This document shows, in pieces, positions 40,814 through 44,711 of a DNA stretch of 47,647 nt. Location of the stretch: contig ONKE01000035.1 in assembly GCA_900318355.1 (NCBI GenBank), positions 1-47,647 on the forward strand. The letters run 5' to 3'. How positions within the stretch are numbered: position 1 is the first letter of the stretch; the number at the start of each line of letters is the position of its first letter. The notes below the pieces were generated by a model that was not told where the DNA came from, ran no database searches, and saw only the letters and a list, made by a program, of their open reading frames with translations. This stretch comes from an uncultured Bacteroidales bacterium (GTDB lineage: Bacteria; Bacteroidota; Bacteroidia; Bacteroidales; UBA932). Made by a program: the position numbers and the translations under genes.

Positions 40814-42706
<1,893 letters not shown>

Positions 42707-42834: not shown

Positions 42835-42865
42835 TTGTCCAAGTCGGGAAACTTCCGTATCTTTG
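42835..42865 (+). promoter_or_regulatory. Promoter of the copper ATPase gene (TTG-N20-TATCTTTG)
   Basis: -33 TTG at 42835-42837 and -7 TATCTTTG at 42858-42865 are 20 bp apart. The predicted start at about 42870 is the A of the ATG, so the transcript is probably leaderless. No CueR-type dyad is obvious. Confidence 0.65.
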
Positions 42866-42869
42866 CGGC

Positions 42870-44711
42870 ATGGCAAAGACAGTAAGAAAGAATTTCCCCG
42901 TCGAGGGAATGGGCTGCGCGGCATGCGTCGCCCGTGTCGAAAATACGCTCAAAGGCTGCCCCGGAGTCGAAAACGCCTCGGTGAGCCTTGCTTCCAACAG
43001 CGCTCAGGTCGACTATGACCCGGGAGTGACATCCGGAAAAAAACTGCGCGAGGCCGTCCAGGCCGCCGGTTACGACCTTCTGGTCGGCGAGGATGAAGAC
43101 GAGCCTGCCCCGGAAGACGAGGCTGACCGAAGACGGGAAGATGTATATTCCTCGTTGAAACGCGATGCGATCGCGGCGGCCGTTCTCGCGGCGCTCGTGA
43201 TGCTGCTCGCCATGGGCTTCAAGCCCTTCCATGGCCGTGGGATCGCCATGGCAGTCCTTGCAGGGACGGCCGTTTTCTGGTGCGGACGCCGTTTTATCGT
43301 CACGGCTTGGAACCAGGCCCGCCACGTCAGCGCCAACATGGACACCCTGGTCGCGCTTTCGACCTGTATCTCCTTCTTTTTCAGTTTGTTCAATCTGGCT
43401 TTCCCCGGAGTATGGACCAGCCGCGGCCTGGAGGCTCATCTGTATTTCGAGTCTTCGGCCATGATAGTGGCGTTCATCCTTCTGGGCCGGCTCCTCGAAG
43501 AAAAGGCCAAGCATGGCACCACGGCTGCAATCCGCGCCCTGAAAGGCCTTCAGCCCAAAGAGGTGAATGTCAGGCCGGGAGATATCGTCGACATCGCCCC
43601 GGGCTCGCGCATCCCTGCAGACGGCACGGTGGTCGAAGGCAGCTCCACGGTGGACGAAAGCATGATGACAGGGGAACCGGTTCCTGCTGAAAAGGGGCCC
43701 GGCTCGGTCGTGTACGCCGGCACCATCAACCAGGCGGGCTCTTTCCGCATGCGCGCCGACAAGACCGGCTCCGAGACCATGCTCGCCGCGATTATCCGCA
43801 TGGTGCAGGACGCCCAGGGCAGCAAAGCCCGCATCCAGAGGACGGTGGACAAAGTCGCCGCTGTTTTCGTTCCCGTCATTATCGGCATTTCCCTGCTCAC
43901 GCTTGTGGCCTGGATAGTCCTGATGCCGGGAGAAGGCCTTGCAATGGGGCTTCTGTCCATGGTCACGGTGCTCGTCATCGCCTGTCCGTGCTCCCTGGGC
44001 CTCGCCACGCCGACCGCAATTATCGCCGGTATCGGCAATGCCGCATCCAAAGGAATTCTCGTAAAGGACGCCGACAGCCTCCAGACCGCCCGGCGCGTCG
44101 ATACGGTGGTGCTTGACAAGACCGGCACGCTCACCGTAGGCCGCATCGACGACCTGGGCGAAGACCGTCTCAAGCCGACTTCAGTGGCTGCGGTTGCCGA
44201 GCTTCGCCGCCGCGGACTTGCCGTCCACATGATGTCGGGCGACGAACCGGGCCGCGCCGCGGCAATAGCCGCAGAGGCCGGAGTCGACGATTTCCGCTCG
44301 CGCTGCCTCCCTGCCGACAAGGCCGACTACATATCAGCCCTTAAGGCCGAGGGCCATACCGTTGCCATGGTGGGCGACGGCATCAACGACAGTGCCGCCC
44401 TGGCCCGTGCCGACCTCAGCGTCGCAATGGGCAGCGGAACCGACATCGCCATGGACGCCGCCATGGTGACCCTTGTGACATCCGACCTGCAAAAGATTCC
44501 GCAGCTGATAGACCTCTCGCGCAGGACCGACCGCATAATCAAGGAAAACCTGTTCTGGGCCTTTTTCTACAACGTCCTGGCCGTCCCCCTTGCCGCCGGA
44601 GTGCTTTATCCGGTATGCGGGTTTATGGTCAGCCCCATGGTCGGAGCGGCCTGCATGGCGCTGAGTTCGGTCTGCGTCGTCTGCAACAGCCTTCGCCTGC
44701 GTCGGGGTTAG
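42870..44711 (+). CDS. copA: Copper-type P1B ATPase apparently lacking the N-domain
   Basis: 613 residues from ATG 42870 ([11 protein letters not shown]); about 120 shorter than one-HMA CopA proteins. The HMA domain has GMGCAAC (C16, C19). Eight membrane helices include the transport motif CPC (C372, C374). The actuator loop has TGEP (267-270), the phosphorylated Asp is D416 in DKTGT, and '[12 protein letters not shown]' is at 500-511. Only about 33 residues separate 'DKTGTLT' (416-422) from 'MSGDEPG' (455-461), where the nucleotide-binding domain with the His-Pro motif should lie; that domain is absent. Flanks are in frame with no stop. It may be a pump with altered ATP use, a non-pumping copper binder or an assembly deletion. 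Confidence 0.87.

What the first reader, a model, noticed from the sequence alone, without database searches (positions are those of the whole stretch)
44115..44250. Copper P-type ATPase with the nucleotide-binding domain cleanly missing
The protein keeps its HMA domain, CPC transport site, TGEP actuator loop, phosphorylated DKTGT (D416) and GDGIND hinge. Only about 33 residues lie between DKTGTLT and MSGDEPG, where CopA relatives carry an N-domain of roughly 120-150 residues with the His-Pro motif. The join is in frame near residue 425-431 and the flanks still look under selection. If real, this is either a pump that binds ATP without an N-domain, a pump that borrows one in trans, or a copper-binding membrane protein that no longer pumps. 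The neighbouring chaperone gene dnaK and the separate promoter add interest.
Basis: partly seen in the sequence, partly recalled or inferred. Interest (0 to 1): 0.78.

Follow-up and report, generated by a model that had tools for sequence, protein, structure and literature searches.

The report
Copper pumps lacking their ATP-binding domain
Many gut and rumen bacteria carry a copper-pump protein from which the part that normally holds ATP has been cleanly lost, apparently several separate times in evolution, while the reaction centre has been kept, so these proteins may work without a part thought essential for such pumps.

Summary
The window's CopA (42870-44711, 613 aa) keeps HMA, CPC, TGE, DKTGT, SGD, K484 and GDGIND but lacks the N-domain: DKTGT to GDGIND is 86 residues, against 180-211 in full genus relatives. 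It is no assembly error. By match span, at least 45 of 159 genus genomes with a CopA match (400 searched) carry the unbroken N-less form, as do 24 of 251 genomes of a second Bacteroidales family, 5 of 15 of a third, and the circular replicon of Segatella hominis HDD12. Trees reject one origin; 7-8 changes of state are needed. Catalytic residues are invariant in 38 of 38 genus N-less proteins, P-domain dN/dS is about 0.06, and substitutions recur beside the active site. AlphaFold keeps the P-domain, with a short flap hairpin where HAD C1 caps insert. Profile searches of 22 N-less genomes found no convincing separate N-domain gene. Most likely the phosphorylation cycle runs without an N-domain, perhaps on a small acyl phosphate; the donor is inferred. 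Ten library searches listed no report of this.

The parts
42870..44711 (+). copA-like gene without N-domain, 613 aa, with stop codon
   Evidence: ORF; Pfam/NCBIfam; orthologues of the same architecture
42894..43076 (+). HMA metal-binding domain, residues 9-69, GMGCAAC
   Evidence: Pfam PF00403 E=1.4e-17; C16 and C19 invariant in 6 N-less sequences
43668..43676 (+). TGE dephosphorylation loop of the actuator domain (residues 267-269)
   Evidence: TGE in 38 of 38 N-less genus rows; SGE in Segatella hominis
43983..43991 (+). CPC transport site in M4 (residues 372-374)
   Evidence: sequence; invariant in the 56-sequence alignment
44115..44129 (+). DKTGT phosphorylation motif, D416
   Evidence: 38 of 38 N-less and 53 of 53 full rows
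44136..44231 (+). residues 423-454: short stretch left where full CopA carries its N-domain; begins in the HAD flap hairpin (strands 422-425 and 432-434)
   Evidence: length comparison; AlphaFold model
44235..44243 (+). SGD, HAD motif II (residues 456-458); TGD in most full-length relatives
   Evidence: S in 36 of 41 N-less, T in 65 of 72 full rows
44319..44321 (+). P-domain lysine K484
   Evidence: 38 of 38 N-less and 53 of 53 full rows
44373..44390 (+). GDGIND hinge motif (residues 502-507)
   Evidence: G502, D503, G504, N506, D507 in 38 of 38; position 505 I in 37, V in 1
40814..42706 (-). dnaK (named from its sequence, recalled), divergent neighbour, not thought to be part of the function
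   Evidence: ORF; same protein cluster beside copA in several other loci

Best explanation
This is a genuine form of the copper P1B-ATPase in which the N-domain has been lost at its insertion point in the HAD flap of the P-domain. SHOWN here: N-less architecture in many species; catalytic residues kept; strong purifying selection; more than one origin on the trees; recurrent substitutions near HAD motif II; no dedicated N-domain gene detected. INFERRED: the P-domain now works as an open, uncapped (C0-like) HAD site. D416 is phosphorylated and dephosphorylated (TGE, K484, GDGIND) without an ATP-holding domain, and this cycle still switches the CPC site of M4 to move Cu(I) delivered through the HMA domain. 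The most likely donor is a small acyl phosphate such as acetyl phosphate, because a classical P-type ATPase with a blocked nucleotide site still acts on acetyl phosphate and p-nitrophenyl phosphate.
For: Unbroken N-less match in 6 of 61 genomes, at least 45 of 400 in the genus census, 24 of 251 and 5 of 15 genomes in two other families, and one isolate replicon. D416, K417, T418, G419, T420, T422, G457, D458, K484, G502, D503, N506, D507 invariant in 38 of 38. P-domain dN/dS medians 0.061 and 0.058 in N-less pairs, 0.088 and 0.146 in full pairs of the same divergence classes. One-clade topology rejected for all N-less (p-AU 6e-6) and within the genus (p-AU 4e-89). In-place loss: L116 (full) and L078/L085 (N-less) have the same two neighbours on each side. 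Five of the seven largest N-less/full differences lie at residues 448-477. Models with intact P-domain and short flap; Foldseek's 13 best PDB matches are Cu-ATPases. [quoted passage not shown] FITC-blocked H,K-ATPase still hydrolyses acetyl phosphate or pNPP (PMC4215238, one passage). Acetate kinase in 22 of 22 genomes tested.
Against: No biochemistry: neither transport nor phosphorylation is shown. Acetate kinase is also in all 5 full-CopA genomes tested, so it does not discriminate. [quoted passage not shown] A conserved catalytic site also fits Pi-driven gating or phosphatase activity. The tree-aware test of T456S is not significant (about 4 pairs for, 0 against, median p 0.125). The scan is not a formal test, and several high-ranking positions lie elsewhere (109, 87, 270, 223, 524, 390). 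The window itself has S456, R462 and S477 but not M448, K459 or E461. Trees are 'quick' ones (SH-aLRT only), and regain of the N-domain by recombination is not excluded.
Confidence: 0.4

Rival explanations
1. It no longer pumps uphill. D416 is phosphorylated reversibly by inorganic phosphate (the back-door E2 reaction of P-type ATPases, recalled), which gates a passive Cu(I) pathway, or the protein is a copper sensor or buffer that keeps the switch.
For: All residues needed for the E2/E2P part of the cycle (TGE, D416, K484, GDGIND) are kept, and that half needs no nucleotide; HMA and CPC are kept.
Against: An unpowered facilitator gives a cell little reason to keep the whole chemistry at dN/dS about 0.06; recurrent changes near motif II suggest a retuned donor site.
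Confidence: 0.25
2. It still uses ATP, bound directly and weakly by the P-domain and Mg2+ alone at the millimolar ATP of the cell; the N-domain raises affinity but is dispensable.
For: P-domain phosphate and Mg sites are intact; charged side chains after motif II (K459, E461, R462 in some clades) could help hold a polyphosphate.
Against: No adenine pocket remains: no HP or GxG motif in the short linkers. No example known to me.
Confidence: 0.2
3. An N-domain is supplied in trans, by the other P1B ATPase of the genome or by an unrelated nucleotide-binding protein.
For: 18 of 19 N-less genus genomes and 3 of 3 from other families have an N-domain hit inside another long ORF. That ORF is a second P1B ATPase where checked: G000, G016, G017, G033 and G725, G785, G609; in the rest this is inferred from ORF length.
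Against: No convincing stand-alone N-domain gene in those 22 genomes; G105 (96% complete) has no match at E <= 0.1. Marginal hits only in G114 (E 0.015, 120-aa frame) and G609 (E 0.014, with a stop). The profile does reach divergent N-domains at E 1e-6 to 1e-10. Second hits also occur in 4 of 7 full-CopA genomes.
Confidence: 0.08
4. It has become a membrane-tethered HAD phosphatase for another substrate; C0 HADs often act on large substrates (recalled).
For: C0-like architecture; intact HAD motifs.
Against: The transport parts (CPC, HMA cysteines, TGE) are conserved too, which a phosphatase would not need.
Confidence: 0.05
5. Assembly artefact or pseudogene.
For: Most named carriers are metagenome-assembled; one relative (G1256) has an in-frame TAG.
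Against: Dozens of species, isolate replicon, bimodal spacing, low dN/dS.
Confidence: 0.02

Closest known systems
CopA, copper-exporting P1B-1 ATPase (e.g. 7r0g A. fulgidus CopA, 4bbj/3rfu L. pneumophila CopA; organism names recalled or from PMC9433437)
   Same: HMA, M-domain with CPC, A-domain TGE, P-domain DKTGT/GDGIND; Foldseek TM 0.77 (by query length) to 7r0g_A; TIGR01511 over its cut-off
   Different: No N-domain, no HP motif; motif II usually SGD instead of TGD; 613 and 645 aa in the window and Segatella forms, while full genus relatives have longer open frames (711-867 aa, cut loci aside)
C0-type HAD enzymes (uncapped haloacid dehalogenase superfamily)
   Same: Rossmann-like core with short flap hairpin and no C1 cap (models; cap classes from passages of PMC8069645)
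   Different: Here the HAD core is inside a membrane protein with A-domain and CPC site; by sequence it descends from CopA, not from a C0 family
KdpB and other P-type ATPases
   Same: P-domain and A-domain motifs
   Different: Their families carry an N-domain (recalled). The 31 PDB sequences matched are, by name, P-type ATPases or fragments of them; I did not check each for an N-domain

Membership tests
P1B-type copper ATPase (CopA) | Over the curated cut-off of TIGR01511 copper-translocating P-type ATPase | tested here: met
   509.4 bits, cut-off 397, in two stretches
P1B-type copper ATPase (CopA) | CPC motif in M4 | tested here: met
   C372-P373-C374; invariant in alignment A3
P1B-type copper ATPase (CopA) | Invariant catalytic Asp in DKTGT, GDGxND, (T/S)GE | tested here: met
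   catalytic Asp and (T/S)GE named in PMC9433437 (passages)
P1B-type copper ATPase (CopA) | N-terminal HMA domain (common, not universal; recalled) | tested here: met
   PF00403 E 1.4e-17
P1B-type copper ATPase (CopA) | N-domain with HP nucleotide-binding motif | tested here: not met
   absent in cis; no convincing separate gene
P1B-type copper ATPase (CopA) | ATP-dependent Cu(I) export | not testable with these tools
   needs biochemistry
HAD superfamily, C0 (uncapped) class | HAD motifs I-IV on a Rossmann-like core | tested here: met
   D416, S456, K484, D503/D507 (assignment to motifs recalled) and model
HAD superfamily, C0 (uncapped) class | No C1 domain in the flap hairpin | tested here: met
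   strands 422-425 and 432-434 with 6 residues between in the window model; two short helices between strands 415-417 and 435-437 in L138
HAD superfamily, C0 (uncapped) class | Descent from a C0 HAD family | tested here: not met
   nested among full-length CopA in trees: cap lost secondarily

The most novel reading that the evidence does not exclude
A family of P-type transporters that has given up ATP as its phosphoryl donor: repeated loss of the N-domain turned the copper pump into a transporter energised by a small acyl phosphate such as acetyl phosphate, coupling copper export directly to fermentation flux in gut Bacteroidales.
Probability: 0.25. Interest if true: 0.93.

Novelty: new variant of a known kind. 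Interest (0 to 1): 0.8.

Why it matters
To my knowledge (recalled) the N-domain is treated as universal to P-type ATPases, the part that brings ATP to the catalytic aspartate. A natural group that lost it, apparently several times, and kept the rest under strong selection makes an old question directly testable: what is the minimal P-type machine, and must it use ATP? It also shows that a protein annotated 'heavy metal translocating P-type ATPase' (Segatella hominis) can lack the ATP-binding domain, which matters for annotation, metal-resistance prediction and modelling of rumen and gut bacteria. A named isolate carries it.

Tried and rejected
Single-species deletion or misassembly: rejected. 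Single loss: rejected by AU tests, which were made after seeing the tree and on quick trees; regain of the N-domain by recombination is not excluded, so 7-8 is a count of changes, not of losses. Dedicated trans N-domain gene: none convincing. N-less form outside Bacteroidales: in the sample of 395 phylum genomes (query L138, E <= 1e-80, list cut off) I saw unbroken matches only in G725 and G000. In the plasmid collection (at least 5000 records match, 30 shown) I fetched two: H2 (Segatella) is N-less, H4 (Runella) is full; the other one-piece hits were not examined. Acetyl-phosphate synthesis as a discriminator: acetate kinase in 17 of 17 N-less and 5 of 5 full genomes, uninformative. Neighbour genes: look like housekeeping genes (gmk, nadD, trpS, dnaK; named by recall from sequence). 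Scar at the deletion: only two short direct-repeat pairs in 44000-44400, none flanking it in a telling way. Literature: titles and abstract starts as listed (one search showed 20 of 86, 10 of 47), showed no paper on a P-type ATPase lacking the N-domain; papers opened were PMC9433437, PMC8069645, PMC4215238 and PMC11208427, passages only. The library lacks most subscription journals. dN/dS is Nei-Gojobori; pairs with saturated dS were dropped (counts), and pairs are not independent.

Full report
WHAT IS THERE. The window contig (G000:C70; genome 2.31 Mb, 77 contigs, 91% complete) encodes on the + strand, 42870-44711, a 613-residue CopA-like protein. HMA, actuator domain and part of the HAD hydrolase are recognised by Pfam. 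TIGR01511 (copper-translocating P-type ATPase) scores 509 bits against a cut-off of 397, but in two pieces, the best ending at residue 426. Between DKTGTLT (416-422) and MSGD (455-458) there are 32 residues. By the script the gap from DKTGTLT to the next (S/T)GD motif is 28-38 residues in the six N-less proteins and 127-171 in the full-length P1B ATPases where the motif was found.

IT IS SHARED. A search of 61 genomes gave six species of the genus (the window's own included) with one unbroken match over residues 1-612, and others whose match breaks near 426/431. The five relatives are 66-84% identical to the window protein. In a census of 400 genomes of the genus, 159 had a match at E <= 1e-60. 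I count 35 with an unbroken near-full-length match and 10 more with a shorter match that runs unbroken across the junction, so at least 45 N-less; this is judged from match spans, and the match list is cut off. The 80 named loci are all from assemblies titled Bacteroidales or Bacteroidia bacterium, many titles naming ruminant stomach samples. Of 104 loci (L033-L136), 101 gave both motifs: spacing 82-93 (58) or 180-211 (43), nothing between (L120 no ORF, L089 and L136 cut). Outside the genus, an order-wide census (393 genomes, 130 with a match at E <= 1e-90) showed three more N-less carriers, in two other families. A census of the first of these families gave 24 unbroken N-less matches among the 38 genomes with a match at E <= 1e-125, of 251 searched, in 7 genera, some in one- or two-contig genomes; one (G1256) has an in-frame TAG. 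Spacing was checked for the 12 fetched loci of that census (89-97); the rest are judged from match spans. The other family: 5 of 15 (spacing checked in 4). Segatella hominis HDD12 (circular 317-kb record, human source) carries a 645-aa N-less form annotated 'heavy metal translocating P-type ATPase'. A phylum sample of 395 genomes showed no other N-less form among the matches listed.

MORE THAN ONE ORIGIN. With the N-domain columns left out, 38 N-less and 53 full proteins do not separate: 7 changes, 4 forced by well-supported branches. With more families (113 and 124 rows), 8 changes, 7 forced. Holding all N-less together costs 413 log-likelihood units (p-AU 6e-6), and within the genus 266 (p-AU 4e-89). 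These are quick trees with SH-aLRT support, and the tests were made after seeing the tree. The window and its nearest N-less relative L004 form a pair (support 100); their sister group is uncertain (support 88, 7). Spacing differs between clades (82, 83, 86, 89, 90, 93, 96, 97) and once within a clade (L076, 82 among 93s). The loss happened in place: full L116 and N-less L078/L085 have the same two neighbours on each side (trpS immediately upstream, nadD and gmk downstream on the other strand; names by recall), and L115 (full) and L084 (N-less) share trpS immediately upstream. Regain by recombination is not excluded.

SELECTION. In 38 of 38 distinct N-less proteins of the genus, D416, K417, T418, G419, T420, T422, G457, D458, K484, G502, D503, G504, N506, D507 and the TGE loop are unchanged. 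P-domain dN/dS medians are 0.061 (29 usable of 33 pairs) and 0.058 (72 of 139) in N-less pairs, against 0.088 (23 of 23) and 0.146 (48 of 49) in full pairs of the same divergence classes (pairs are not independent). The window-L004 pair gives 0.070 in the P-domain, the full pair L090-L123 0.223. So the P-domain looks at least as constrained without its N-domain. In a scan weighting 8 N-less clades equally, 5 of the 7 largest N-less/full differences lie at residues 448-477, around and after HAD motif II: E461 (weighted 0.72 vs 5/72), S456 (0.71 vs 7/72), M448 (0.73 vs 15/72), K459 (0.49 vs 1/72), S477 (0.50 vs 4/72); R462 (0.37 vs 0/72) ranks twelfth. Others lie elsewhere (109, 87, 270, 223, 524, 390). 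This is not a formal test. For S456 alone the tree-aware pair test leans the same way (about 4 for, 0 against) but gives only median p 0.125. The window has S456, R462 and S477 but R448, E459 and G461, so it shows only part of the pattern.

NO CONVINCING SPARE N-DOMAIN. A profile of 21 genus N-domains was run on 19 N-less and 7 full genomes. All 7 full genomes gave a hit at E 6e-21 or better. Of the 19 N-less, 18 gave one hit (E 4e-10 to 2e-6) inside another ORF of 539-681 aa, plus one marginal 120-aa hit in G114, and G105 gave none. That ORF is a second P1B ATPase in G000, G016, G017 and G033 (places); for the others I infer it. The same held for the three N-less genomes tested in other families (second P1B ATPase seen), with one marginal, stop-interrupted hit in G609. 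In the genus census all 35 genomes with a near-full-length N-less match show one match each, so both forms were not seen together, but only the 3 best candidates per genome were scored.

STRUCTURE. AlphaFold models of the window protein (pLDDT 83.5, pTM 0.77) and of L138, from the separate N-less group (87.5, 0.81), keep the P-domain fold. In place of the N-domain there is a short hairpin (422-425/432-434) or a hairpin with two small helices. Foldseek's 13 best PDB matches are Cu-ATPases. In the HAD superfamily C1 caps sit in the middle of this flap hairpin, and the P-type ATPases are given as an example (PMC8069645, passages). The deletion thus leaves an uncapped, C0-like HAD core, which would explain why it can be clean and repeated (inference).

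HOW IT PROBABLY WORKS. In the usual cycle an invariant P-domain aspartate is phosphorylated by ATP, the HP motif of the N-domain binds the nucleotide, and (T/S)GE dephosphorylates (PMC9433437, passages). Here everything but the nucleotide holder is kept. [quoted passage not shown] but such phosphatase activity of P2-ATPases is described as not linked to ion transport (PMC11208427, passages). I favour N-domain-independent phosphorylation by a small acyl phosphate (0.4), then Pi-driven gating or loss of pumping (0.25), then direct weak ATP use (0.2). Acetate kinase occurs in 22 of 22 tested genomes of both kinds, so the donor may be available but this does not discriminate.

NOVELTY. Ten library searches (listings, some capped) showed no report of a P-type ATPase without N-domain; the library misses most subscription journals, so this is weak evidence of absence. 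By the membership tests it descends from CopA and meets the sequence criteria tested except the N-domain; 'ATPase' should be treated as unproven. I class it as a new variant of a known kind.

Noticed in passing
window 42858-42865: TAtcTTTG, like the Bacteroidales -7 promoter box (recalled), lies 4 bases before the copA ATG at 42870, hinting at a leaderless transcript; TAnnTTTG is found within 60 nt upstream of the script's chosen ATG in 7 of 38 N-less and 20 of 45 full genus genes.
   Followed up: partly
L059-L063, L065, L066, L069, L070, L073, L074: In the largest N-less clade copA often starts 13-22 nt behind nadD, after gmk (names recalled), on the same strand, as if in one operon with housekeeping genes.
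   Followed up: partly
L090, L109, L123, L124 and other full-length genus CopAs: Many 'full' genus CopAs have short N-domains (about 92-100 residues by the cut used), keeping the HP and GxG residues, possibly a stage before loss.
   Followed up: no
L137-L139, L168-L179, L181-L184: Most members of the second N-less group share a conserved stretch after motif II with a YW pair and a later HY pair, and the Segatella hominis protein is 70-79% identical to those of another family, suggesting horizontal transfer.
   Followed up: partly
G1256:C1:1339228-1341114: One N-less copy in a single-contig genome carries an in-frame TAG: a decaying copy or a sequencing error.
   Followed up: no
G085, G240, G340: N-less relatives whose best match to the window begins only at residue 233, so their N-terminal half is divergent or separated.
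   Followed up: no
genus census: 241 of 400 genus genomes, many incomplete, had no match to this CopA at E <= 1e-60, so this copper ATPase seems patchy in the genus.
   Followed up: no
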